Of a stretch of 37,211 bases of DNA, positions 23,988 to 36,825 are shown piece by piece. The notes beneath the pieces are model-generated. The model had not been told where the DNA came from. It was given only the letters and a program-made list of their open reading frames with translations, and did not search any database. The stretch is from a virus: positions 1 to 37,211 of the IMG/VR virus record IMGVR_UViG_3300008339_000200, one strand, 5' to 3'. Both the position numbers and the translations under genes were made by a program. Positions within the stretch are counted from its first letter, which is position 1. Each line of letters begins with the position of its first letter.

Positions 23988-26900
23988 ATGGCTGACACAC
24001 AGTATCCTACAATTGTATATCCTCACGAGCTACCTACTGTTCCTCAAGCTCAGCCAGGCGATTTACTTTTCTTAGAGCAAAAAAACCCAGACGGTTCTTA
24101 CACCACTTATTCTGTTGCAGTTTCAACAGTATCTGCAGTAGGACCTAAAGGAGATGAAGGCCTTTCAGGTTATTCAGGTGTATCTGGTTTTAGCGGTATA
24201 AGTGGTTTTAGTGGTCAAGGCGTATCGGGGTATTCTGGTTATAGTGGAGAAAGTACTTCAGGCTATTCAGGTATTTCAGGTTACTCTGGTATAAGCGGGT
24301 ACTCAGGCTACTCTGGTATTAGCGGCTATTCTGGTATTAGCGGTTTTAGTGGGTACAGTGGTTACAGTGGTATAAGTGGTTATAGTGGTATAAGTGGTTA
24401 CAGCGGACCTTCTCCTACAGGGGTAGTTTACTATTATTCTACTTCTGCCGCTGATGTGAGCGGTTTACCGTTACCTCAAGGCTTACCTACTCCTTACAAT
24501 TACGGTTTATTATTCGACGCTCAAGAGGTAGGTTCAGAAATTTATCTTGATACTATTATAAACGATACGGATGGGCAAGCTTTAGTGTTTGCTGCTATTA
24601 CACCTCCAAGTAAACCATTTAAAACTCTTATTAATATAGGTAATTGGTCGTTTGATACTTTCTATTCAGTTTCAGGTTTAAGCGCTGAGTATAGTACTAC
24701 CAATTTTGTTTATAAAGTATTTAAAAGAGCGGTAGACAGCACTGAAACAGAATTATTTTCTGCTACGGGAGCCGCGTTAACTAAAACTCCATTTGCGACT
24801 TATCAAAGAACAAATTATTACATACAGTCTCCATTAGTATTAAATCAATCAGATAGACTTGTCTTTAAAGTATTCGTACAAACTACTAACACTGAAGACA
24901 CAGACGTAACATATTATTATCTCGGAGACACAAATTATAGTAGAGTAGTAACAAATATAACAATAGGGTTTGACGGTCAATCTGGCTTTTCTGGTATGTC
25001 TGGTTACAGCGGCATATCGGGGTATTCTGGTTTTAGTGGATCCGGAACCTCGGGGTATTCTGGTTTTAGTGGTCAAGGTACATCAGGTTATTCTGGTTAT
25101 AGTGGTAATAGTACTTCTGGCTATTCTGGCTATAGTGGTATAAGTGGCTATTCTGGTCCTTCAGGCTATTCGGGTTATTCTGGTATGTCGGGCTACTCTG
25201 GTTTTAGTGGAGCGAGCGGTTTTAGTGGCCAAGGCATTTCAGGGTACTCTGGTTTTAGTGGTAATAGTGCTTCTGGTTATTCAGGCTATAGCGGTATTAG
25301 TGGCTATTCTGGTATAAGTGGTTACTCAGGCTACTCAGGTTTTAGCGGTATATCAGGCTTTAGTGGTTATAGCGGTACTGGTAGCTCTGGTTATTCAGGT
25401 ATTTCAGGTTATTCAGGTATAAGCGGCTATTCTGGTCTTTCAGGTCATTCTGGTTACAGCGGTATTTCAGGATACTCTGGAATAAGCGGCTATTCAGGTA
25501 TATCAGGTCATTCTGGTTATAGTGGTATATCAGGTTTTAGCGGTCAAGGTACTTCTGGCTTTTCAGGGTACTCGGGCTTTAGCGGTATAAGTGGTTTTAG
25601 TGGTTTTAGTGGTTATTCAGGTGTATCAGGTTATTCTGGTTATAGTGGTATAAGCGGTTATTCCGGTATATCAGGTTTTAGCGGTCAAGGTACTTCAGGC
25701 TATTCTGGTTTTAGCGGTTACAGTGGTATATCTGGTTATACAGGGTTTAGCGGGGTGTCCGGTTATAGTGGTATTAGTGGTTATAGCGGTATATCAGGCT
25801 TTAGTGGTTATTCAGGCGTATCAGGTTATTCTGGCTATAGCGGTATTAGTGGTTATTCGGGCTATAGTGGTTATTCGGGCTATAGCGGTATTTCTGGTTA
25901 CTCTGGCAATTCAGGTTACAGTGGTTTGTCTGGTTATTCAGGTTTTAGCGGTATATCTGGTTATTCTGGTTTTAGCGGTATATCAGGTTTTAGTGGTCAG
26001 GGCACATCAGGGTATTCTGGTTATAGTGGTATAAGTGGTTACAGCGGCTTTTCCGGCTATAGCGGGTATAGTGGTATAAGCGGTTATTCAGGTTATAGTG
26101 GTATTTCTGGCTACTCCGGCTACTCCGGTATATCAGGTTATAGTGGTATTTCAGGCTTTAGCGGCTGGAGCGGTTACTCTGGCTACAGTGGGTATAGCGG
26201 AGATAGCGGTATATCTGGCTATAGCGGGTATTCTGGTTATAGTGGTTATAGTGGAATAACCCCTCAGATTTGTACCGTATTTTTTCCAAATACGGGAGAA
26301 TATTATTTTCAGTCAGTCGGGGAAACATTTTATCAAACCCCTATTACAGCAGGGTTAGCGTTTAACGCTGGTCAAACATTGTCTGTATACGCCGCCGGAG
26401 ACAATATTGTTCAGTATATGTTTGTTCGCAGTTATGATAGCGTGACTGGTGCATTAAGTGCAATTGTAACGTATTCTCAGTCTCCTGGTTTTAAGACATA
26501 TAATAATCTTGAAATATGTTTAGCAGGACAAGTAGGTATATCAGGGTATTCTGGTTATAGCGGTATTAGTGGTTATTCAGGTATATCAGGATTTAGCGGT
26601 CAAGGCATTTCAGGGTATTCTGGTTATTCAGGCTATAGCGGCATAAGCGGTTACTCAGGCTACAGCGGTATTTCTGGTTACTCTGGTTACTCTGGTATAT
26701 CAGGCTATAGCGGTATAAGTGGTTATTCTGGTATATCTGGCTATTCTGGCTATAGCGGTATAAGTGGTTATTCTGGTATATCTGGCTATTCTGGCTATAG
26801 CGGTATAAGTGGCTATTCTGGTCCTTCAGGCTATTCAGGCTATTCAGGTTATTCTGGAGTATCAGGCTACTCTGGTTTTAGCGGCTATTCAGGTTACAGC

Positions 26901-28415
26901 GGTATTAGCGGTTATTCAGGCTATAGCGGTATTTCTGGCTACTCAGGTTTTAGCGGGATCAGCGGTTATTCCGGTTATTCAGGCTACAGCGGTATAAGTG
27001 GCTATAGTGGCTTGTCAGGTTACTCAGGTATAAGCGGTTTTTCTGGTGTGTCTGGTTATTCTGGTATAAGTGGTTACTCAGGTTTTAGTGGTATATCAGG
27101 ATACAGCGGTCAAGACGGTCAAGGTTTAACCCCTGAAGCAAATAGATTATATGTTTCTAAAGACGGTAATGATAGTAATGACGGTCGAACTTTAGCTACA
27201 CCTTTTCTCACCATTAAAAAAGCGGCGGCTTATGCTGCAGCTAATTTAGGTACAAAATACACTATAATCCTTATCAGTGGGGATTATACTGAAGCAAACC
27301 CAATTTATCTTGCTCCTAATGTTTCGGTCATTGGAGATAATTTAAGAAGAGTTTCAGTACGCCCAACTAACAGACAATACGATGTGTTTTGGTGCACTAA
27401 TAGTGTTTATGTTTGGGGTATTACTTTTAGAGATCATTTAGCGCCAGCCGCGGCTTGCGCATTTCCAAATCTTTCTAATGCTTCTTTAACTGCAATTGCA
27501 TTTAATACTACCGGGTATGAAATTACACCTCCTGCTAGCAAGCCATTTATAACTACAAGCCCGTACATTCAAGGTAGTAGCTCTATTACTTCAGGAGTAA
27601 GCGGTCTAAGCGCAGGCTGTGGTATTAGAGTAGACGGTAATTTAGCTACCGGCTATTTAAGAAGCTTTGTAACGGACTCATTTACTCAATTTAACGAAGG
27701 TGGTATGGGTATCCATATCACTAATAATGGTTACGCGCAGCTAGTATCAACCTTTACTATTTGCTGCACTGAAGGGGTAAGAGCCGACAACGGCGGCACT
27801 TGCTCAATTAATACCTCTAACTGTTCTTTTGGTCTATCCGGTCTAGTTGCAGTAGGGTATTCTTCTACCCCGGTACTTACCGGTATATTAGCGCTAGCAA
27901 CTGATGGTACAGATACTATTGCAGTAAGCGCAATAACACCAAGATCTTTTCCTGCATATGATCTACCAATTGACAGGCCTTACGTAGGATTAGTATTTAA
28001 AATAGAAAATGATAATACTTTATACACTTTAGATTCTGTTACTTTAACAGATATTATAACGTACAAGTACAATATAATATCTACTTCTAATATTACTAAT
28101 ATACTTTCAGCTGGTTCTAAAGTAAACTTTTATATAAGAAGTACAATTACTTCAAGCTCGCATACGATGGAATATGTAGGCTCTGGTGTAACACTTGCAA
28201 CTGCAGTACCTTCTTTAGGCGGAGTTGGAAATCCTGATTTAGAAGCTGTACAAAGCGACGGAGGTGCCGTATACTATACAAGTACTAATCAATTAGGTAA
28301 CTTTAAAGTAGGTAGCGGATTTACAGTAGTGCAATCTACCGGAACTATTGAAGGCGAAACATTTAATAGATCTATATTATCATTAGTGACTCCCCTTACT
28401 CTTGCATTAGAGTAA
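23988..28415 (+). CDS. Giant repeat fibre with Gly-X-Ser blocks and C-terminal beta-helix, 1475 aa
   Basis: A long fibre protein. Residues 1-51 are a non-repeat head (ELPTVPQAQPGDLLFLEQ) that probably anchors it. Three Gly-X-X blocks follow (about 52-142, 327-758 and 847-1045), almost all GYS, GIS, GFS or GVS with hardly any proline, opened by one ordinary collagen-like GPKGDE. Two globular inserts interrupt them: 143-326 (GVVYYYSTSAAD, NWSFDTFYSVSGL) and 759-846 (CTVFFPNTGEYYFQSVGETF). The C-terminus from 1046 starts RLYVSKDGNDSNDGRTLATP, the opening of DUF1565-like right-handed beta-helix domains, and ends with YYTSTNQLGNFKVGSGF, a phrase common in phage fibre tips. Receptor binding or attachment is likely but unproven. 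Confidence 0.85.
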   Translation: MADTQYPTIVYPHELPTVPQAQPGDLLFLEQKNPDGSYTTYSVAVSTVSAVGPKGDEGLSGYSGVSGFSGISGFSGQGVSGYSGYSGESTSGYSGISGYSGISGYSGYSGISGYSGISGFSGYSGYSGISGYSGISGYSGPSPTGVVYYYSTSAADVSGLPLPQGLPTPYNYGLLFDAQEVGSEIYLDTIINDTDGQALVFAAITPPSKPFKTLINIGNWSFDTFYSVSGLSAEYSTTNFVYKVFKRAVDSTETELFSATGAALTKTPFATYQRTNYYIQSPLVLNQSDRLVFKVFVQTTNTEDTDVTYYYLGDTNYSRVVTNITIGFDGQSGFSGMSGYSGISGYSGFSGSGTSGYSGFSGQGTSGYSGYSGNSTSGYSGYSGISGYSGPSGYSGYSGMSGYSGFSGASGFSGQGISGYSGFSGNSASGYSGYSGISGYSGISGYSGYSGFSGISGFSGYSGTGSSGYSGISGYSGISGYSGLSGHSGYSGISGYSGISGYSGISGHSGYSGISGFSGQGTSGFSGYSGFSGISGFSGFSGYSGVSGYSGYSGISGYSGISGFSGQGTSGYSGFSGYSGISGYTGFSGVSGYSGISGYSGISGFSGYSGVSGYSGYSGISGYSGYSGYSGYSGISGYSGNSGYSGLSGYSGFSGISGYSGFSGISGFSGQGTSGYSGYSGISGYSGFSGYSGYSGISGYSGYSGISGYSGYSGISGYSGISGFSGWSGYSGYSGYSGDSGISGYSGYSGYSGYSGITPQICTVFFPNTGEYYFQSVGETFYQTPITAGLAFNAGQTLSVYAAGDNIVQYMFVRSYDSVTGALSAIVTYSQSPGFKTYNNLEICLAGQVGISGYSGYSGISGYSGISGFSGQGISGYSGYSGYSGISGYSGYSGISGYSGYSGISGYSGISGYSGISGYSGYSGISGYSGISGYSGYSGISGYSGPSGYSGYSGYSGVSGYSGFSGYSGYSGISGYSGYSGISGYSGFSGISGYSGYSGYSGISGYSGLSGYSGISGFSGVSGYSGISGYSGFSGISGYSGQDGQGLTPEANRLYVSKDGNDSNDGRTLATPFLTIKKAAAYAAANLGTKYTIILISGDYTEANPIYLAPNVSVIGDNLRRVSVRPTNRQYDVFWCTNSVYVWGITFRDHLAPAAACAFPNLSNASLTAIAFNTTGYEITPPASKPFITTSPYIQGSSSITSGVSGLSAGCGIRVDGNLATGYLRSFVTDSFTQFNEGGMGIHITNNGYAQLVSTFTICCTEGVRADNGGTCSINTSNCSFGLSGLVAVGYSSTPVLTGILALATDGTDTIAVSAITPRSFPAYDLPIDRPYVGLVFKIENDNTLYTLDSVTLTDIITYKYNIISTSNITNILSAGSKVNFYIRSTITSSSHTMEYVGSGVTLATAVPSLGGVGNPDLEAVQSDGGAVYYTSTNQLGNFKVGSGFTVVQSTGTIEGETFNRSILSLVTPLTLALE
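24141..24413 (+). repeat. Gly-X-Ser codon repeat block 1, first fibre
   Basis: About 30 consecutive nine-base units encoding G-[Y/I/F/V]-S, with synonymous codons freely mixed. It begins with GPK-GDE and ends before the first globular insert. Confidence 0.9.
24966..26261 (+). repeat. Gly-X-Ser codon repeat block 2, first fibre
   Basis: About 144 nine-base units of G-[Y/I/F]-S type, interrupted by occasional GQG-TSG and GNS units. It is the longest block of this fibre. Confidence 0.9.
26526..27122 (+). repeat. Gly-X-Ser codon repeat block 3, first fibre
   Basis: About 66 units of the same type, ending in GQD-GQ before the beta-helix domain. Confidence 0.9.
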
Positions 28416-28416
28416 A

Positions 28417-28424
28417 GTAAATAT
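28417..28424 (+). promoter_or_regulatory. Late-promoter-like element GTAAATAT
   Basis: GTAAATAT eight bases before the ATG of the 115-aa gene, just after the stop of the first fibre. Confidence 0.52.
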
Positions 28425-28432
28425 AATAGTAT

Positions 28433-28780
28433 ATGGCCTCGATACCATTAAACTATTTCAAAAGAGTAACTGCAGGCGCAACCACCATTCCGACAGTAAT
28501 TTATACAGCCCCTGCAAGCCGGGCAGGTATTATACTTTCTGCTGTTGCATCTAACATAACTAATAGTGTTCATACTATTACAGTAGGCATTTCAGCTGAT
28601 AATGTATCCGGGTCCTATTATGACTTACTTAAAGGCTTTTCTGTACCTAATGGAGATGCGGTTAATGTAGCGGTTGGTAAACTAGTTTTAGGGACCGGGG
28701 ATCAATTAATTATATCTGCCGCTAGTAACTCTGCAGTAAATTTCACTTTAAGCGTGTTAGAAGCTGTTAACACACAATAA
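28433..28780 (+). CDS. Small beta-rich virion protein candidate, 115 aa
   Basis: A compact protein predicted to be nearly all beta strand: NYFKRVTAGATTIPTVIYTA, GIILSAVASNITNSVHTITV, GDAVNVAVGKLVLGTGDQLI, and the ending NFTLSVLEAVNTQ. The pattern (strand, small loop, 'sN.t...h.i.v', 'kLvL..gD.l', 'SvLE') is one I associate with small proteins sitting between fibre genes in aquatic T4-like phages; I cannot name the family. It may form a ring or a connector for the fibres. The stop shares its last base with the ATG of the second fibre, so the two are coupled. Confidence 0.7.
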   Translation: MASIPLNYFKRVTAGATTIPTVIYTAPASRAGIILSAVASNITNSVHTITVGISADNVSGSYYDLLKGFSVPNGDAVNVAVGKLVLGTGDQLIISAASNSAVNFTLSVLEAVNTQ

Positions 28781-31700
28781 TGGCCACGTACAATCAACCC
28801 CAACTTATAAGCGATAGGGTGCAGGTTATACCGCCTTTAAGTGCGGACTCGGCTCGCTATCAGTTTCTTAATTTAAAAAATGCTGAGCCTAATTTAGGAG
28901 TACCGTTAAGCGCGTCCGCTGGCGCAAATTATATTCCTATATCTAATGATTCTGGAGTAAGAAGTTTTACCACTAATAATTCTATAGTACTTTCGGGGGA
29001 TAAAGTAGGCTTTGGTAAATTACCAGTTTATGCAGTTGATGTTAATGGAGATGTTAATGTTACTGGAGAATTTCGCAAAAACGGAGAAATAGTCTCCGTC
29101 AGTGGCTATTCAGGTTACAGCGGTATATCTGGTTATTCCGGGTTTAGCGGTATATCGGGCTATTCAGGTTACAGCGGTGTATCAGGCTACTCAGGTTACA
29201 GCGGTATATCGGGCTACTCAGGCTATAGTGGTATATCGGGCTATTCAGGCTATAGTGGTATTAGTGGTTACTCAGGCTATAGTGGTATATCGGGCTACTC
29301 AGGCTATAGTGGTATTAGTGGTTACTCAGGTTATAGCGGTGCTGACGGTATTTCTGGGTATTCTGGTATATCAGGCTACTCAGGTATATCAGGCTACTCA
29401 GGTATATCAGGCTACTCAGGCTATAGTGGTATTAGTGGTTACTCAGGTATATCGGGGTATTCAGGTTATAGCGGTGCTGACGGTATTTCTGGGTATTCTG
29501 GTATATCAGGCTATAGCGGTATAAGTGGCTATAGCGGCATATCAGGCTATTCTGGTTATTCGGGTATTTCTGGTTATTCGGGTATTTCTGGCTATTCTGG
29601 TTATAGCGGTATTATAGGAGAGTCTGGAACTTCTGGTTATTCTGGTATATCAGGTTATAGTGGTATAAGTGGTTATTCAGGTTATAGTGGTATATCAGGC
29701 TATTCCGGGGAATCAGGTTATAGTGGTATATCAGGTTATAGCGGTATATCAGGTTATTCTGGTTACAGCGGTACATCTGGTTATTCTGGTTATTCCGGTG
29801 TATCTGGTTATTCAGGTATTTCAGGCTATAGCGGCATAAGTGGTTACTCAGGTGTTTCTGGCTATAGTGGCTATAGCGGTATTAGTGGGTATAGTGGAGA
29901 CGCTGGAACTTCAGGCTATAGTGGCGGTGTTGGGCAATCTGGTTATAGTGGTATTTCTGGTTATAGTGGTGCATCTGGTTTTAGCGGCTTTAGTGGTGCC
30001 CCAGCAGTTGGGGTAGTTTATTACCCGACTACTTCTGCAGCTGATATAGCTAATTTTAATTACTATGATGTAGTACCTCAATCAGGCGCTGAAACAACAT
30101 CGACTACATTTATTGCTATTACTGACAATTATAAAACAGTAATTTCAAATATTACTCTTACCGGAGAGCCCGGTACTACTAGTATACCTGTAGGTACTTG
30201 GGTCTTTGATACTTATTATAGTTTAGCGGGTTTAGGTTTAGGATTAGGTAAAGTAGTAAACCTTGCGTTTGAAATATTAAAATATAACGGCAGCACTTTA
30301 ACAAGCTTATTTACGGCCTACAATGATGGGGCTATTACTACCAATGTTGCTTCAGGTTCACCTGCATCTTTATTAACAGAGTATGTAATTTCTACCCCAA
30401 TTGCCTTAGATGCCACGGACCGTCTAGCGATTATAACTAAAGCTAGTACAAACGATACTAATACTATACAGTTTAACTTCCATTATCTAGGCGCAGACCA
30501 TTATAGCGCTGTACGAACCGGTATATACCGCGGAGCTGTAGGCACATCTGGTTTTAGCGGCTACAGCGGTATTAGTGGTTATAGTGGTATAAGTGGTTAT
30601 TCTGGTCCTTCAGGTTATTCCGGTGGGTCTGGTTATAGTGGCTATAGTGGTATAAGTGGTTATTCTGGTACAAGTGGTTATTCCGGTATATCTGGTTATA
30701 GTGGACCTCAAGGTACAGTAGGCACTCAAGGCCCTACCGGTACGTCGGGTTATAGTGGTATATCAGGCTACTCTGGGCCACAAGGTGCTATTGGTACCTC
30801 AGGCTACTCAGGTATAAGTGGTTTTTCTGGTATATCTGGTTATAGCGGTTATTCAGGTATACCAGGCGACTCGGGCACATCAGGTTATTCTGGTATATCA
30901 GGCTACTCCGGTATAAGTGGTTTTTCTGGTATATCTGGTTATAGCGGTTACTCCGGTATAAGTGGTTTTTCTGGTATATCTGGTTATAGCGGTTACTCTG
31001 GTATATCAGGCTATTCTGGTCCACAAGGTACAGCTGGCGCCCAAGGTACTACTGGTACTCAAGGCATTACCGGAACATCTGGTTTTAGTGGTGTATCGGG
31101 GTATTCTGGTTTATCAGGGTATAGTGGTTACTCAGGTATAAGCGGCTTTAGCGGACCTCAAGGCACTACTGGTACTTCAGGCTTTAGCGGTATATCGGGT
31201 TATAGTGGTATAAGCGGCTTTAGCGGTCCTCAAGGCACTACTGGCACGCAAGGCACTACTGGTACTTCAGGCTATAGCGGTATAAGTGGTTATAGCGGTA
31301 TATCTGGCTACTCTGGACCGCAAGGCACAACCGGTACTCAGGGTACTACTGGCACTTCAGGCTTTAGTGGTATATCTGGCTATTCAGGCATATCAGGGTA
31401 TAGTGGCCCACAAGGCACTACTGGCGCACAAGGCGTAACCGGCACTCAGGGTACTACTGGTACTTCAGGCTTTAGCGGTATATCTGGATATTCTGGACCG
31501 CAAGGTACTACTGGCGCACAAGGCGTAACCGGCACTCAGGGCACTACTGGTACATCAGGGTTTAGCGGTATATCAGGATATTCTGGCCCACAAGGTACTA
31601 CTGGCACTCAAGGCACTACTGGCACTTCAGGCTTTAGCGGTATAAGTGGTTATAGCGGTATATCTGGCTACTCTGGCCCACAAGGTACTACTGGCACGCA

Positions 31701-33612
31701 AGGCACTACTGGTACATCAGGGTTTAGCGGTATATCAGGATATTCTGGCCCACAAGGTACTACTGGTACGCAAGGCACTACTGGCACTTCAGGCTTTAGC
31801 GGTATAAGTGGTTATAGCGGTATATCTGGCTACTCTGGCCCACAAGGTACTACTGGCACTCAGGGTACTACTGGTACTTCAGGCTTTAGCGGTATATCAG
31901 GATATTCTGGCCCACAAGGTACTACTGGTACGCAAGGCACTACTGGTACGCAAGGTACTACTGGCACTTCAGGCTTTAGTGGTATAAGTGGTTATAGCGG
32001 TATATCTGGCTACTCTGGCCCACAAGGTACTACTGGCACTCAGGGTACTACTGGCACTCAGGGTACTACTGGTGCCCAAGGTATTACAGGCACGCAAGGC
32101 ACTACTGGTACATCAGGGTTTAGCGGTATATCAGGATATTCTGGCCCACAAGGTACTACTGGCACTCAAGGCACTACTGGCACTTCAGGCTTTAGTGGTA
32201 TATCTGGCTATTCCGGTGTTAAAGGTGCAACCGGCTCTCAAGGAGCAACTGGCGCACAAGGTACTACTGGCACTCAAGGCACTACTGGCACATCAGGCTT
32301 TAGTGGTATATCTGGTTATTCTGGCCCACAAGGTACTACTGGCGCTCAAGGCACTACTGGCACTACTGGTGCCCAAGGTATTACCGGGACCCAAGGCACT
32401 ACTGGCACTTCAGGCTTTAGCGGTATAAGTGGTTATAGCGGTATATCTGGCTATTCCGGTGCAAAAGGTGCAACCGGCTCTCAAGGAGCAACTGGCGCGC
32501 AAGGCACTACTGGCACTACCGGTACCCAAGGCACTACTGGTGCCCAAGGCACAACCGGCACTCAAGGTACTACTGGTACTTCAGGCTTTAGCGGCATAAG
32601 TGGTTACTCAGGTGTTTCTGGCTATTCCGGTGCAAAAGGTGCAACCGGCTCTCAAGGAGCAACTGGCGCGCAAGGCACTACTGGCACTACCGGTACCCAA
32701 GGCACAACTGGCGCACAAGGCACAACCGGCACTACCGGTACCCAAGGCACTACTGGCGCACAAGGCACAACCGGCACTCAGGGTACTACTGGTACTTCAG
32801 GCTTCAGCGGTATAAGTGGTTATAGCGGTATATCTGGCTATTCTGGTGCCAAAGGTGCAACTGGCTCTCAAGGAGCAACTGGCGCGCAAGGCACTACCGG
32901 CACTACCGGTACCCAAGGCACAACTGGCGCACAAGGCGCAACCGGCACTCAGGGTACTACTGGTACATCGGGCTTTAGCGGTATATCTGGCTATTCTGGC
33001 GCCAAAGGCACAACTGGATCTCAAGGTGCGACCGGCACCCAAGGTAATACTGGCGCCCAAGGCACTACCGGTACCCAAGGTATAACTGGTACATCGGGCT
33101 TTAGCGGTATTTCAGGTTACTCTGGTGCATTTGCGGGCACTGGTACAACAAATTATGTAGCTAAGTTTACTGGTGCAAGTTCATTAGGTAATAGTCAGAT
33201 ATTTGATAACGGTACAAACGTCGGTATTGGTACTCAAAGTGCCGCTTATAAATTAGAAGTCAGTGGTTCATTTGCTGCAACTACTAAGTCTTTCGTAATT
33301 GATCACCCAACTAAGCCTGGTAAGAAATTAGTATACGGTGTTATAGAAGGCCCTGAGCATTCGGTCTTTATACGTGGTAAAACCACTACAAATGTAATAC
33401 CTTTACCAGAGTATTGGTTTAATTTAGTAGACGAAGAAACAATTACCGTTCAACTCACACCTATAGGCGCATTTCAAAAGCTTGTAGTCTTAGAAGCAAA
33501 TAGTAGACAAGTCACTATTAAGAATGATAGTATGCTTGACTCTCTAATTGATTGCTACTTCTTCATACAAGCAGAACGTAAAGACATACCAAAATTAGTA
33601 ACGGAGGTGTAA
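28780..33612 (+). CDS. Giant repeat fibre, Gly-X-Ser and Gly-Thr-Thr/Gln blocks, 1610 aa
   Basis: The largest gene of the window. Residues 1-108 are an N-terminal head ending in KLPVYAVDVNGDVNVTGEFR, a phrase found in fibre shafts. Residues 109-408 are GYS/GIS repeats, and 409-587 a globular insert homologous to the one in the first fibre (GVVYYPTTSAADIANF, TWVFDTYYSLAGL). Residues 588-1448 are a second repeat region where GYS units alternate with GPQ-GTT-GTQ-GTT-GTS units. The C-terminus 1449-1610 has TNYVAKFTGASSLGNSQIFD, YKLEVSGSFAATTKSFVID, EGPEHSVFIRGKTT, EYWFNLVDEETITVQLTPIG and YFFIQAERKDIPKL, a module I recognise from other phage fibre ends. The long shaft suggests a fibre of hundreds of nanometres if extended. 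Confidence 0.85.
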   Translation: MATYNQPQLISDRVQVIPPLSADSARYQFLNLKNAEPNLGVPLSASAGANYIPISNDSGVRSFTTNNSIVLSGDKVGFGKLPVYAVDVNGDVNVTGEFRKNGEIVSVSGYSGYSGISGYSGFSGISGYSGYSGVSGYSGYSGISGYSGYSGISGYSGYSGISGYSGYSGISGYSGYSGISGYSGYSGADGISGYSGISGYSGISGYSGISGYSGYSGISGYSGISGYSGYSGADGISGYSGISGYSGISGYSGISGYSGYSGISGYSGISGYSGYSGIIGESGTSGYSGISGYSGISGYSGYSGISGYSGESGYSGISGYSGISGYSGYSGTSGYSGYSGVSGYSGISGYSGISGYSGVSGYSGYSGISGYSGDAGTSGYSGGVGQSGYSGISGYSGASGFSGFSGAPAVGVVYYPTTSAADIANFNYYDVVPQSGAETTSTTFIAITDNYKTVISNITLTGEPGTTSIPVGTWVFDTYYSLAGLGLGLGKVVNLAFEILKYNGSTLTSLFTAYNDGAITTNVASGSPASLLTEYVISTPIALDATDRLAIITKASTNDTNTIQFNFHYLGADHYSAVRTGIYRGAVGTSGFSGYSGISGYSGISGYSGPSGYSGGSGYSGYSGISGYSGTSGYSGISGYSGPQGTVGTQGPTGTSGYSGISGYSGPQGAIGTSGYSGISGFSGISGYSGYSGIPGDSGTSGYSGISGYSGISGFSGISGYSGYSGISGFSGISGYSGYSGISGYSGPQGTAGAQGTTGTQGITGTSGFSGVSGYSGLSGYSGYSGISGFSGPQGTTGTSGFSGISGYSGISGFSGPQGTTGTQGTTGTSGYSGISGYSGISGYSGPQGTTGTQGTTGTSGFSGISGYSGISGYSGPQGTTGAQGVTGTQGTTGTSGFSGISGYSGPQGTTGAQGVTGTQGTTGTSGFSGISGYSGPQGTTGTQGTTGTSGFSGISGYSGISGYSGPQGTTGTQGTTGTSGFSGISGYSGPQGTTGTQGTTGTSGFSGISGYSGISGYSGPQGTTGTQGTTGTSGFSGISGYSGPQGTTGTQGTTGTQGTTGTSGFSGISGYSGISGYSGPQGTTGTQGTTGTQGTTGAQGITGTQGTTGTSGFSGISGYSGPQGTTGTQGTTGTSGFSGISGYSGVKGATGSQGATGAQGTTGTQGTTGTSGFSGISGYSGPQGTTGAQGTTGTTGAQGITGTQGTTGTSGFSGISGYSGISGYSGAKGATGSQGATGAQGTTGTTGTQGTTGAQGTTGTQGTTGTSGFSGISGYSGVSGYSGAKGATGSQGATGAQGTTGTTGTQGTTGAQGTTGTTGTQGTTGAQGTTGTQGTTGTSGFSGISGYSGISGYSGAKGATGSQGATGAQGTTGTTGTQGTTGAQGATGTQGTTGTSGFSGISGYSGAKGTTGSQGATGTQGNTGAQGTTGTQGITGTSGFSGISGYSGAFAGTGTTNYVAKFTGASSLGNSQIFDNGTNVGIGTQSAAYKLEVSGSFAATTKSFVIDHPTKPGKKLVYGVIEGPEHSVFIRGKTTTNVIPLPEYWFNLVDEETITVQLTPIGAFQKLVVLEANSRQVTIKNDSMLDSLIDCYFFIQAERKDIPKLVTEV
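29104..30003 (+). repeat. Gly-X-Ser codon repeat block 1, second fibre
   Basis: About 100 nine-base units. It includes near-identical DNA copies at 29161-29337 and a duplicated 135-base segment at 29338-29607. Confidence 0.9.
29338..29607 (+). repeat. Tandem duplication of a 45-residue segment with synonymous divergence
   Basis: Two adjacent 135-base copies (29338-29472 and 29473-29607), each starting GADGISGYSGIS. As read here the 45 encoded residues are identical, while the DNA agrees well only over roughly the first 40 bases and then differs at many synonymous sites, including TCA versus AGC serine codons. Confidence 0.85.
30541..33123 (+). repeat. Mixed GYS / GTT-GTQ repeat block 2, second fibre, with higher-order units
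   Basis: About 287 Gly-X-X units. From about 31140 they are organised in higher-order units of roughly 24-45 residues (GTSGFSGISGYSG followed by PQGTTGTQGTT), repeated about twenty times. Toward the 3' end GAK-GAT-GSQ-GAT variants replace GPQ. Confidence 0.9.
33603..33608 (+). promoter_or_regulatory. Strong Shine-Dalgarno site GGAGGT
   Basis: GGAGGT five bases before the ATG at 33614, inside the last codons of the second fibre. It contrasts with the SD-less starts of many genes here and suggests this LamG gene is read from a long upstream transcript. Confidence 0.75.
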
Positions 33613-33613
33613 C

Positions 33614-34309
33614 ATGGCAACAAACTATTCTCCAAGAGTAGTAACCGATGGCTTAGTGATGTGTTTAGATGCTGGTAATCAAAAAAGCTATTCAGGATCT
33701 GGTACTGCTTGGAATGATTTAAGCTTTACAGGTAACAATGCAACTTTAGTTAATGGACCGACTTACAGTGGTGCAAATGGCGGAGCAATTACTACTGATA
33801 CTGTTGATGATTATATTTCAGTTAATAATAGCTCTTCTTTACAATTAACAACTGGCTTTACAGTTGGTATGTGGGTTAAGTTTAATAATGCTATAGGGGT
33901 ATCTTACAAAAATCTTATAGGAAAACCTACATATACTAAGTACGGAATAATTATTGAGTGGTATGGTAATAATCCGTTATTACCAGATTTTATTTCAACA
34001 GGAGGCGCAAGAAATACTGGACCCGGGCTACTTTATCCTTCATTAACTAATTGGAATTATGTAGTACACTCTTACGATAAAAACGGAGGCGCCAATAACC
34101 AACGATTTCATGTATGGCATTCAGGAACATATACCAGCGCATATGCTACGCCCGGTGCGCTTAATATAGAAACATCGACAGACCCTCTTTATATAGGAGG
34201 AGCCGGAGCTGGTTTAACAATAAGTTGCGTGTGGGTTTATAATCGTGGTATAACTAATAATGAAGTACTACAAAATTACAACGCAACTAGATCTCGCTTT
34301 GGATTATAA
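33614..34309 (+). CDS. LamG/concanavalin A-like virion protein 1
   Basis: A 231-aa jelly-roll protein, first of five related copies. It opens with the family signature PRVVTDGLVMCLDAGNQKSY, then SGSGTAWNDLS and NNATLVNGPTY. The middle has LTTGFTVGMWVKFNN, typical of LamG-like (concanavalin A-like) folds, and NWNYVVHSYDKN. It closes with SCVWVYNRGITNNEVLQNYN and a short ATRSRFGL tail. The fold binds carbohydrates or other surface ligands in many proteins, so a role in host-surface recognition or capsid/fibre decoration is plausible. The strong GGAGGT site fixes the start. Confidence 0.78.
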   Translation: MATNYSPRVVTDGLVMCLDAGNQKSYSGSGTAWNDLSFTGNNATLVNGPTYSGANGGAITTDTVDDYISVNNSSSLQLTTGFTVGMWVKFNNAIGVSYKNLIGKPTYTKYGIIIEWYGNNPLLPDFISTGGARNTGPGLLYPSLTNWNYVVHSYDKNGGANNQRFHVWHSGTYTSAYATPGALNIETSTDPLYIGGAGAGLTISCVWVYNRGITNNEVLQNYNATRSRFGL

Positions 34310-34312
34310 TTT

Positions 34313-34582
34313 ATGTACAGCGCTCGTGAATTCATGATAATAAATTCTTCTCAAATCAGCGCTGTTGATTTTGAGCAAGTTTTAGAAACATCTCCAGAAA
34401 CTTTAAGGTATTCTGTTGACAAATCACTAACCCTTTTTAAATGGGACAATAATAAAACTAATGGTATCCCTTCAAGTATTGCTAATATACCTAGCGAGTA
34501 TAAACAAGGGCCTTATAACTACGAAGAAATGATGATAGAGTTAAACTCTCCTGTCTGGACCCAGCCTACATCAGGTATATAA
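34313..34582 (+). CDS. Small hypothetical protein between LamG genes, 89 aa
   Basis: Unrecognised family. YSAREFMIINSSQISAVDF, then EQVLETSPETLRYSVDKSL and TLFKWDNN make a short alpha/beta start; the end is GPYNYEEMMIELNSPVWTQP. It is not a LamG domain. It is separated by three bases from the upstream LamG gene. Small genes in such positions often encode fibre chaperones or minor fibre parts, but there is no direct evidence here. Its stop is embedded in the ATAAGTAA element of the next gene. Confidence 0.7.
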   Translation: MYSAREFMIINSSQISAVDFEQVLETSPETLRYSVDKSLTLFKWDNNKTNGIPSSIANIPSEYKQGPYNYEEMMIELNSPVWTQPTSGI

Positions 34583-34586
34583 GTAA
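34579..34586 (+). promoter_or_regulatory. Late-promoter-like element ATAAGTAA
   Basis: ATAAGTAA four bases before the ATG at 34591; its TAA (34580-34582) is the stop codon of the 89-aa gene. Confidence 0.5.
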
Positions 34587-34590
34587 TAAT

Positions 34591-35292
34591 ATGGGGTATA
34601 ATAACGGACCAAAAATAGTAACAGATCGTTTAGGGCTGTATATTGACTCGGGTAATATTAAAAGCTATTCGGGAACTGGTACAGTATGGAATGATATGAC
34701 TAATAACGGGTTAAATTTTTCTGGGTCTGCTTCTTATATAACCCCGTTAAGCGGAGCATCTGCTGGCTATACCTGGTCGACCGGGACGACAAATTTATTA
34801 GACACCGATCAACATTCAATATTTTTTAGAATACGGTTTAATTCTACTGCTGGTAATTCAACTGGTACTACTGGAAGCTGGGAAAAAATATTTACTTATG
34901 CTCCGGCTACAACTGATAGAAGCCCGGGGGTATGGAGATGGCCAAGTAATAGATGGATACACTGGAGATACGATCCAGGCAATACCGGTTGCGATTTTGG
35001 GTATAATAGTATTACTTTAGATTCTAATAGTGAGTTTCCGTTAAACACGTGGTTTTATATAGGGGTAACTAAAAATGCAAATGAAACAATAAATTATGTT
35101 AACGGGAAACGAATAGGGGCACAGTACCCGACTAGCAATAAAACATCTGGTTCGTCGCCAATTTATATATTTGAATATTACACTAATCCGTTATGTAATG
35201 TTGATAATATGTTTATATACAATAAAGTTTTAACTGATTCAGAAGTATTACAAAACTACAACGCATTAAAAGGAAGGCTTGGTTTACCGTGA
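34591..35292 (+). CDS. LamG-like virion protein 2
   Basis: A 233-aa member of the same family: NNGPKIVTDRLGLYIDSGN, then IKSYSGTGTVWNDMTNNG. The jelly-roll core has HSIFFRIRFNS and FPLNTWFYIGVTKNANETIN. The shared ending is MFIYNKVLTDSEVLQNYN followed by ALKGRLGLP. The region between about 45 and 150 is quite different from copy 1, as expected if it forms variable ligand-binding loops. The stop overlaps the next start (GTGA at 35289-35292). Confidence 0.77.
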   Translation: MGYNNGPKIVTDRLGLYIDSGNIKSYSGTGTVWNDMTNNGLNFSGSASYITPLSGASAGYTWSTGTTNLLDTDQHSIFFRIRFNSTAGNSTGTTGSWEKIFTYAPATTDRSPGVWRWPSNRWIHWRYDPGNTGCDFGYNSITLDSNSEFPLNTWFYIGVTKNANETINYVNGKRIGAQYPTSNKTSGSSPIYIFEYYTNPLCNVDNMFIYNKVLTDSEVLQNYNALKGRLGLP

Positions 35293-35996
35293 GTATATTT
35301 GGAGGGCCTAAAGTTGTTACTGACAATTTAATACTTTGCTTGGATGCAGGTAATAAAAAAAGCTATCCTGGTTCTGGTACTGTATGGTACGATTTAACTC
35401 CAAACAATAATAATTTTAATATAATTGCTACCGCATATAATGCAGCAGGTTATATGGACTTTAACGGGGCATACGGTTGTGCTAAAAATAGTACAGATAT
35501 ATCTTTATCCGATGCTACTGGTGTAACGTATCATATTGTTACTCGAGTTAAAAATTCGACTGCTGAATGGAGAACTCTTACTCGCTCCTACGATGCCGAT
35601 CACCAAGTCATTATAGAAAGCGGCGGTTGGAATATAGGTATGTATGATAATAATGGTGCCGGGTTCTTAGGTACAGGTTTTTCCCAGCAAAATTTACCAG
35701 GCAACGGCACTACCACCTGGATACAAATATACTGGAGGTGGCAGTCCTCTTCTCCGTATTATCAATTTAGTTACAATGACTCTCCTACAGTAACTAGAGG
35801 TACCATTGCTGACGCTAATTCTAGATACAATAGAGGTTTTGGATCTTTAGGGGCTTATCATAATGGTAGTACTGACCCTGCTAATTCGTCTCAGTACTGG
35901 GGAGATATAGCATACTTTGCGGCTTATAATAGGTTTTTAAATAATTCAGAACTACTTCAAAATTATAATGCATTAAAAGGAAGGTTTAAACTATGA
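35289..35996 (+). CDS. LamG-like virion protein 3 (GTG start)
   Basis: A 235-aa family member: GGPKVVTDNLILCLDAGNKK, then SYPGSGTVWYDLTPNNNNF. Core strands include TGVTYHIVTRVKNSTAEWR and TTWIQIYWRWQSSSPYYQFS; the end is AYFAAYNRFLNNSELLQNYN followed by ALKGRFKL. It begins with GTG, unlike its paralogues, within a GTGA overlap with the previous stop. No SD or late-promoter-like element is near, so it most likely depends on coupled translation. A YNDSP phrase and TRGTIADANSRYNRGFG are specific to this copy. Confidence 0.76.
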   Translation: MSIFGGPKVVTDNLILCLDAGNKKSYPGSGTVWYDLTPNNNNFNIIATAYNAAGYMDFNGAYGCAKNSTDISLSDATGVTYHIVTRVKNSTAEWRTLTRSYDADHQVIIESGGWNIGMYDNNGAGFLGTGFSQQNLPGNGTTTWIQIYWRWQSSSPYYQFSYNDSPTVTRGTIADANSRYNRGFGSLGAYHNGSTDPANSSQYWGDIAYFAAYNRFLNNSELLQNYNALKGRFKL

Positions 35997-36184
35997 CCAC
36001 TAAAGCAGACGTAAAACAGATGTGCGATGCAATAATTGGACAGTTATTCTGGTTAGATACTGAACCAGATAGCGAACTGATACAGCAAATGAAAATATAT
36101 CGTCAAAGTTTAATTAATTACCCCAACACCTATGTAGAAGGTACTATGACTATATTCCCTTTAGACCCTAGAATAAAAATATGA
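35993..36184 (+). CDS. Small protein, possible tail/fibre assembly chaperone, 63 aa
   Basis: Only 63 aa. GQLFWLDTEPDSELIQQM followed by KIYRQSLINYPNTY and FPLDPRI recalls the C-terminal pattern of phage tail assembly chaperone-like proteins ('R..LL..tDw..lPD......a...YRqaLr.ip.......P..P'). It overlaps its neighbours by ATGA at both ends, so it is translated as part of the LamG chain. It may help fold or attach the adjacent LamG proteins. The match is by pattern and the protein is short. Confidence 0.6.
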   Translation: MTTKADVKQMCDAIIGQLFWLDTEPDSELIQQMKIYRQSLINYPNTYVEGTMTIFPLDPRIKI

Positions 36185-36825
36185 GTATAGCCGGCGGCCC
36201 AAAAATAGTTACAGATGGCCTAGTACTATACTGGGATATGGCTGAACCTGACTGCTACCCGGGGTCCGGTACTACTATATACGATTTATGTCGTAATTAT
36301 GACGGCACTCTTTTTAATTCTCCTACTTTTTCAAGAGCTAACGGTGGTATATTAACATTTAATGGTAGTAGTAGTTATGTAACTGGTACCACTGCTAATT
36401 TTTCTACTACAAATTGCACGGTCATGGGTGCTGCAAAATATAACGGGTCGAATGGCCGTATGATAAACGGCGCCAACAATAACTGGTTGATGGGCCATTG
36501 GGGTAATTCAGTAGGTAATTTTTACGCAGAAGGCTGGATAACCGGGGTGGGGGCCGGTGGTACCGATAATAACTGGAAAATATATACTACTTTAAATAAT
36601 TATAGTTCTGATTCTTGGGGATTTTATATTAATGGTGCTCCAAATACTTTGGCCAGCACAGGCGGATCTCAGGGACCGAACGGTATTGCTATAGCAAGAT
36701 ATAACCCAGGAGCTACAGAATACTCAGATGGCAGCTTTTCTTTTTTAATGATTTACAATAGACTATTAAATGCATCTGAAATATTACAAAATTATAACGC
36801 TTTAAAAGGACGGTTTAATATATGA
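36181..36825 (+). CDS. LamG-like virion protein 4
   Basis: A 214-aa family member, the shortest complete copy: GGPKIVTDGLVLYWDMAEPD, then CYPGSGTTIYDLCRNYDGTL and FNSPTFSRANGGILTFNGSS. The usual LDAGN is altered to WDMAEPD. The jelly-roll core is NCTVMGAAKYNGSNGRM, NNWKIYTTLNNYSSDSW. The end is SFLMIYNRLLNASEILQNYN followed by ALKGRFNI. It overlaps both neighbours by ATGA. Confidence 0.77.
   Translation: MSIAGGPKIVTDGLVLYWDMAEPDCYPGSGTTIYDLCRNYDGTLFNSPTFSRANGGILTFNGSSSYVTGTTANFSTTNCTVMGAAKYNGSNGRMINGANNNWLMGHWGNSVGNFYAEGWITGVGAGGTDNNWKIYTTLNNYSSDSWGFYINGAPNTLASTGGSQGPNGIAIARYNPGATEYSDGSFSFLMIYNRLLNASEILQNYNALKGRFNI

What the first reader, a model, noticed from the sequence alone, without database searches (positions are those of the whole stretch)
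23988..33612. Nearly proline-free Gly-X-Ser fibre shafts: collagen-like helix or polyglycine-II bundle?
Hundreds of consecutive triplets are GYS, GIS or GFS with a bulky aromatic or aliphatic residue in position 2, Ser in position 3 and almost no proline. Bacterial collagen-like proteins rely on Pro or charged residues. Gly-X-X segments without proline can form polyglycine-II bundles, as in the gp38 adhesin of phage S16. A stacked ladder of Tyr/Ile side chains along a shaft would be distinctive. If the 861-residue second block of the larger fibre is a triple helix at about 0.29 nm per residue, it would be about 250 nm long.
Basis: partly seen in the sequence, partly recalled or inferred. Interest (0 to 1): 0.62.

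Follow-up and report, generated by a model that had tools for sequence, protein, structure and literature searches.

The report
Proline-free collagen-like phage fibre shafts
Two neighbouring genes of an uncultured contractile-tailed phage encode very long fibre shafts with glycine at every third residue, probably collagen-like ropes built from tyrosine and isoleucine instead of proline, and they obey an unusual nearest-neighbour rule shared by about a hundred related viral sequences.

Summary
Proteins A (1475 aa) and B (1610 aa) carry G-X-Y tracts with Tyr, Ile or Phe in X and Ser in Y, and almost no Pro (0.2-0.5%) or charge (0.5-1.7%). B has unbroken runs of 100 and 289 triplets. Corrections: the 289-triplet block is a mosaic with GTT/GTQ/GPQ triplets, and the longest pure G[YIF]S run is 24 triplets, not hundreds. 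Codon usage shows protein-level conservation. I favour a collagen-type triple helix over a polyglycine-II bundle: runs are long and turn-free, GYS blocks join Pro/Thr/Gln collagen triplets in register, and A's 12 internal breaks are only G1G and G4G. AlphaFold finds no single-chain fold. New here: X residues of adjacent triplets follow a rule. Two aliphatics almost never sit side by side (61 cases, 0.08 of expectation), mainly at lag 1; non-aromatic G-X-Y tracts lack it. This suggests Tyr/Ile side-chain packing in place of proline or salt bridges. That step, the trimer and the triple helix are inferred, not shown.

The parts
23988..28415 (+). Protein A, 1475 aa: fibre protein with GXS shafts, an inserted jelly-roll-like domain and a DUF1565-like C-terminal domain
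   Evidence: ORF; Pfam Collagen 289 bits; PHROG tail-fibre families; DUF1565 at the C-terminus
24141..24413 (+). A shaft 1, GXS, with one G1G and one G4G break
24414..24965 (+). A inserted domain (residues 143-326), paralogue of the B inserted domain
   Evidence: 31% identity, E 2e-18; profile hits in about 40 loci
24966..26261 (+). A shaft 2, GXS (residues 327-758), breaks only of G1G and G4G type
26262..26525 (+). A small inserted domain (residues 759-846), unknown
   Evidence: non-GXY stretch; found in 13 loci, mostly window copies
26526..27125 (+). A shaft 3, GXS (residues 847-1046)
   Evidence: 58-triplet run plus 9 triplets
27126..28412 (+). A C-terminal domain, DUF1565-like
   Evidence: PF07602 E 2e-4
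28433..28780 (+). Small protein between A and B, phrog_1276 (unknown function)
28780..33612 (+). Protein B, 1610 aa: fibre protein with two GXY shafts
   Evidence: ORF; Pfam Collagen 538 bits; PHROG tail-fibre families
29104..30003 (+). B shaft block 1: 100 uninterrupted triplets, mostly GYS/GIS
   Evidence: 115 triplets in five sister contigs
30004..30531 (+). B inserted jelly-roll domain (residues 409-584)
   Evidence: AF2 pLDDT 92; CocE-type C-terminal domain fold, Z 14.2
30532..33132 (+). B shaft block 2: 289 uninterrupted triplets, mosaic of GFSGISGYSG and GPQ/GTT/GTQ/GAQ
   Evidence: 333 triplets in five sister contigs
33136..33609 (+). B C-terminal module shared by many phage fibre proteins on other shafts
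   Evidence: 429 IMG/VR stretches; 47 named phages; on a GXY shaft in 13 of 61 ORFs

Best explanation
A and B are tail-fibre (or similar virion fibre) proteins of a contractile-tailed phage. Their G-X-S tracts form long thin homotrimeric shafts of collagen triple-helix type that space folded domains and hold the C-terminal module far from the virion. Gly at every third residue lets three chains pack. Instead of proline or salt bridges, the shaft relies on its length, on folded end or inserted domains for nucleation, and on packing of aromatic and aliphatic X side chains beside small Ser in Y. Shown: Gly periodicity, protein-level conservation, the neighbour rule, in-register mosaics, break types, and one C-terminal module used on different shafts. 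Inferred: trimer, triple helix, packing mechanism, fibre role.
For: Pfam Collagen 289/538 bits and many PHROG tail-fibre families. Runs of 100 and 289 triplets. Gly and Ser fixed while Gly third bases vary and Ser uses AGY and TCN about 1:1. A's 12 internal breaks are 9 G1G and 3 G4G; in the wider family register-shifting breaks are G1G 205 and G4G 34 against 29 of all other kinds, plus 106 in-register Gly substitutions. From my own knowledge, G1G and G4G are the commonest breaks in animal non-fibrillar collagens. GYS units share one register with GPQ/GTQ collagen triplets, 58 junctions in B block 2, and 47 of 383 aromatic runs in the fetched loci are mixed. Sister contigs differ by whole triplets only (+15, +44). 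AF2 single chain of 180 shaft residues: pLDDT 24.6. A phage-encoded collagen-like protein is a shown trimer with a triple helix near 0.29 nm per residue (PMC3368898).
Against: No solved structure with a Pro-free, charge-free aromatic GXS repeat was found; PDB matches are ordinary collagens matching on Gly spacing. Studied bacterial and phage collagens depend on Pro in X and on charge (PMC3368898, PMC7824840). From my own knowledge of host-guest work, Tyr or Phe in X and Ser in Y are among the weaker choices. Trimerisation was not testable. The inserted domain resembles a CocE-type C-terminal jelly-roll, not an established trimeric cap.
Confidence: 0.72

Rival explanations
1. The shafts are unstructured or weakly associating low-complexity tethers, like the GYS-rich segments of phase-separating proteins; aromatic residues give stickiness and there is no triple helix.
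For: Almost no Pro or charge; AF2 gives pLDDT 24.6; X residues unfavourable for classic collagen (own knowledge). [G/S]Y[G/S] motifs are known in low-complexity domains such as FUS (own knowledge).
Against: A loose tether needs no register, yet Gly is kept for up to 289 triplets, register-shifting breaks are nearly all G1G and G4G, length changes are in whole triplets and collagen-type triplets are fused in register.
Confidence: 0.15
2. The tracts fold as polyglycine-II bundles, within one chain or between chains, as in the gp38 adhesin of phage S16.
For: Gly-X-X without Pro is compatible with PGII packing; X residues of adjacent triplets would line one face, which fits the lag-1 rule.
Against: Long runs lack the loops that PGII sandwiches need (PMC12892980); no compact single-chain model (weak); no gp38 relation; Pro/Thr collagen triplets in the same register.
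Confidence: 0.08
3. The neighbour rule reflects DNA repeat copying (units GYSGIS and GYSGYSGIS amplified) and not side-chain packing.
For: Tandem repeats of 18, 27 and 45 bases are abundant in A and B; sister contigs differ by repeat-unit indels.
Against: Copying should give correlation at longer lags; the effect is strong at lag 1, weaker and reversed at lag 2, and nearly gone by lags 3-4. It recurs across 108 loci, none exceeding expectation, also with V, L, W and F, and is absent from non-aromatic GXY tracts.
Confidence: 0.2

Closest known systems
Phage and prophage collagen-like fibre proteins (EPclA of E. coli O157 prophages; FibU gp68 of phage 80alpha)
   Same: GXY tract between folded modules in a phage-encoded protein; EPclA is a shown trimer with a triple helix (PMC3368898), FibU is predicted only (PMC7048315)
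   Different: They use Pro in X and many charged residues; here both are nearly absent, X is Tyr/Ile/Phe, and tracts are about 3-8 times the 111 residues of EPclA
Bacterial collagens Scl2 and BclA (Pfam PF01391, NCBIfam SclB)
   Same: Match through Gly spacing; Thr-rich units of B block 2 resemble the GPT-type repeats of BclA (own knowledge)
   Different: No cell-wall anchor or bacterial setting; Scl2 is stabilised by Pro and charge (PMC7824840)
PHROG tail-fibre families phrog_6320, phrog_5073, phrog_1806
   Same: Best-scoring families, annotated tail fibre or collagen-like minor tail
   Different: The score comes from the repeats; I know of no characterised member with a Pro-free aromatic shaft
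Methylophilaceae phage P19250A gene 0023 (KX815270)
   Same: Cultured phage with GXS runs of 138 and 127 triplets, Pro 0.5%, rich in Y/F/W/I
   Different: Smaller genome (38.7 kb), more charged residues (4.9%); annotated as tape-measure protein, probably wrongly
gp38 adhesin of phages S16 and PP01 (PGII sandwich)
   Same: Gly-rich phage fibre component
   Different: PGII helices with hypervariable loops at the fibre tip; no sequence relation found

Membership tests
Collagen-like proteins (PF01391) | Gly at every third residue over many triplets | tested here: met
   100 and 289 uninterrupted triplets in B, 221 triplets in runs of 5 or more in A; Pfam 289/538 bits
Collagen-like proteins (PF01391) | Pro-rich or charge-rich X and Y positions (usual, not strictly defining) | tested here: not met
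   Pro 0.2-0.5%, charged 0.5-1.7% in A 327-758, A 847-1046 and B 109-408; B block 2 Pro 2.2%, charged 0.7%
Collagen-like proteins (PF01391) | Three chains forming a triple helix | not testable with these tools
   Only single-chain prediction was available
Phage collagen-like tail fibre | Encoded among virion structural genes of a tailed phage | tested here: met
   Tail sheath, T4-type baseplate protein, hub lysozyme, head-closure and terminase genes in the window
Phage collagen-like tail fibre | Present in virions as a fibre | not testable with these tools
   Needs virion proteomics or microscopy
gp38 polyglycine-II adhesin | Sequence relation to gp38 | tested here: not met
   Only Pfam Collagen matched A and B at E 0.1
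gp38 polyglycine-II adhesin | Gly-rich helices separated by loops and packed within one chain | tested here: inconclusive
   Runs up to 289 triplets without loops argue against it, but the AF2 model has too low confidence to exclude any packing
LPXTG-anchored Scl1/Scl2 adhesin (NCBIfam NF038329) | LPXTG cell-wall anchor at the C-terminus | tested here: not met
   B passes the score cut-off through its repeats, but its C-terminus is a phage fibre module without LPXTG

The most novel reading that the evidence does not exclude
A widespread viral class of triple helices is stabilised not by proline, hydroxyproline or salt bridges but by a ladder of aromatic and aliphatic side chains in X packed beside Ser in Y, with a nearest-neighbour code that forbids adjacent aliphatics and wants an aromatic after each aliphatic.
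Probability: 0.35. Interest if true: 0.78.

Novelty: new variant of a known kind. Interest (0 to 1): 0.5.

Why it matters
Studied bacterial and viral collagens owe their stability to Pro in X and to charge. A large environmental class that lacks both yet keeps the Gly register for up to 289 triplets would mean that the known rules of triple-helix stability are incomplete. The adjacent-residue rule is a precise prediction that can be tested by reordering X residues without changing composition. A cultured phage (P19250A) carries the same kind of shaft, so the question can be put to real virions. It could also offer a genetically encoded rod that needs no hydroxylation.

Tried and rejected
Megablast of the rest of the genome against named phages: no match. 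tblastn with the shaft-bearing half of B and with its inserted domain: no match in named phages; the shaft itself was probably hidden by the low-complexity filter. PDB sequence search with the C-terminal regions: nothing for A; for B only a 40-residue local match to a pilin at E 1e-4, not pursued. PDB search with the inserted-domain profile: nothing. Literature searches for GYSG in a collagen context and for collagen-like phage or cyanophage fibres found no description of this class; the library lacks most subscription journals. An apparent 45-aa shortening of protein A in sister contigs was a locus-edge effect: A is unchanged. PDB entry 8zxl 'axialfibril' looked like a relative but is a GAPGSQGAPGLQ-type sequence matching on Gly only. 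That the neighbour rule is an artefact of the search pattern was rejected: it holds in loci fetched without specifying X (6 against 113 expected). A TNF/C1q-like trimeric cap for the inserted domain: TNF and C1q folds appear only at low TM-score and the best match is CocE-type, so a trimeric cap is not shown.

Full report
What the window is. The window is a 37,211-base IMG/VR record classed as a linear virus fragment. It encodes a contractile-tailed phage: tail sheath, T4-type baseplate protein, hub lysozyme, head-closure protein and large terminase. The terminase is below 60% identical to that of any named phage; the closest are T4-like cyanophages and Pseudomonas phage pf16.

Check of the observation. 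The two proteins lie exactly where stated. B holds uninterrupted G-X-Y runs of 100 triplets (29104-30003) and 289 triplets (30532-33132); A holds 221 triplets in runs of five or more. In B block 1, X is Tyr 53 times and Ile 29 times, and Y is Ser in 94 of 100 triplets. Pro is 0.2-0.5% and charged residues 0.5-1.7% in A 327-758, A 847-1046 and B 109-408. Two corrections: pure G[YIF]S runs reach only 24 triplets, and B block 2 is a mosaic of short GFSGISGYSG units with GTT, GTQ, GTS, GPQ and GAQ triplets, Thr being the commonest X residue.

Conservation acts on the protein. Across 160 (A) and 151 (B) G[YIF]S triplets, Gly is constant by selection of the pattern but its third base varies, and Ser is split almost evenly between AGY and TCN codons. 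Moving between those two boxes takes more than one substitution, so Ser at this position is selected or very old; recent copying of one DNA unit cannot explain it.

Anatomy. Both proteins carry an inserted domain (A 143-326, B 409-584; 31% identical), found in about 40 fetched loci, sister contigs included. AF2 predicts it well (pLDDT 92, all beta). It is a jelly-roll closest to CocE-type C-terminal domains (Z 14.2, 2.6 A over 160 residues). Among viral models its best matches include phage proteins annotated 'Collagen triple helix repeat'. A ends in a DUF1565-like domain. B ends in a module found in 429 IMG/VR stretches and 47 named phages. Of 61 ORFs examined only 13 have it on a G-X-Y shaft, and several of these are copies of one virus; the others have other kinds of N-terminal part. 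Shaft and C-terminal module are thus exchanged as units, as is usual for phage fibres (own knowledge).

Distribution. Among named phages the DNA search found Methylophilaceae phage P19250A and a 735-kb metagenomic phage present as two records. A scan that left X free showed two classes of viral G-x-S tract: one with Thr/Ser in X (69% of all X) and one with Tyr/Ile/Phe in X (19 loci).

In A and B no Ile-Ile neighbours occur in adjacent triplets, against 12 and 17 expected from shuffles. In 377 non-redundant tracts of 108 loci (9,109 triplets) adjacent aliphatics occur at 0.08 of expectation (61 cases), aliphatic followed by polar at 0.24, and aliphatic followed by aromatic at 1.67. The effect is weaker and reversed at lag 2 and nearly gone by lags 3-4; none of 74 testable loci exceeds expectation. 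It holds in loci fetched without specifying X (6 against 113 expected) and is absent from non-aromatic G-X-Y tracts (84 against 71). It is directional: aliphatic-polar is avoided, polar-aliphatic is not. In an idealised triple helix, the X side chain of the next triplet on the same chain is one of the two closest X neighbours, at 9-11 A, while two triplets on is 19-21 A (side-chain radius assumed). A packing rule would then be felt at lag 1, as seen. The same holds for one face of a PGII helix, so the rule supports side-chain packing but does not choose between folds.

Triple helix or PGII bundle. Four points favour the triple helix. First, runs reach 289 triplets without turns, whereas the gp38 PGII sandwich is built of helices with protruding loops (PMC12892980). 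Second, GYS units and Pro/Thr/Gln collagen triplets share one unbroken register, with 58 junctions in B block 2. Third, A's 12 internal breaks are only G1G and G4G, and these make up 239 of 268 register-shifting breaks in the wider family. I recall that the same two are the commonest in animal non-fibrillar collagens; the paper library gave only an incidental mention, so this comparison is not tested here. Fourth, AF2 finds no single-chain fold in 180 shaft residues; this is weak, because AF2 can also fail on single collagen chains. Against: studied bacterial and phage collagens rely on Pro in X and on charge (PMC3368898, PMC7824840), both lacking here, and no solved structure has such a repeat.

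Length. If triple-helical at 0.286 nm per residue, B blocks 1 and 2 would be about 86 and 248 nm. Five sister contigs carry blocks of 115 and 333 triplets; the one compared codon by codon has no other difference in B. The true length is therefore uncertain: it may vary by whole triplets in nature or be collapsed in this assembly.

Verdict. This is a real and widespread class of phage fibre shaft, a new variant of collagen-like protein. Of the two structures offered, the collagen type is better supported (0.72). The neighbour rule is the new and most testable result; a proline-free stabilisation by a side-chain ladder is possible (0.35) but unproven.

Noticed in passing
window 33614-36825: Four paralogous 214-235 aa proteins downstream of B share phrog_24074; two of them match the LamG/concanavalin-like family PF13385 (one above, one below its cut-off). 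Possibly sugar-binding virion proteins.
   Followed up: partly
L242 3901-7506 (KX815270, P19250A_0023): Annotated 'tail length tape-measure protein' but made of GXS runs of 138 and 127 triplets with fibre-like ends; probably a tail fibre.
   Followed up: partly
L223, L224, L175, L198, L240: A second viral class with X = Thr/Ser, with runs up to 785 triplets, also nearly Pro-free; its fold is equally open.
   Followed up: no
window 28780-33612 versus L243-L248: Sister contigs carry a longer B (+15 and +44 whole triplets, no other codon change in the one compared): natural length variation or assembly collapse.
   Followed up: yes
L127, L128, L129: Three bacterial MAG contigs (Omnitrophota, Goldiibacteriota, Nitrospirae) carry the GYSG motif; may be prophage or misbinned virus.
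   Followed up: no
LR756501 104439-104570 and 399885-400247: A 735-kb metagenomic phage has both the repeat and, elsewhere, the B-type C-terminal module.
   Followed up: no
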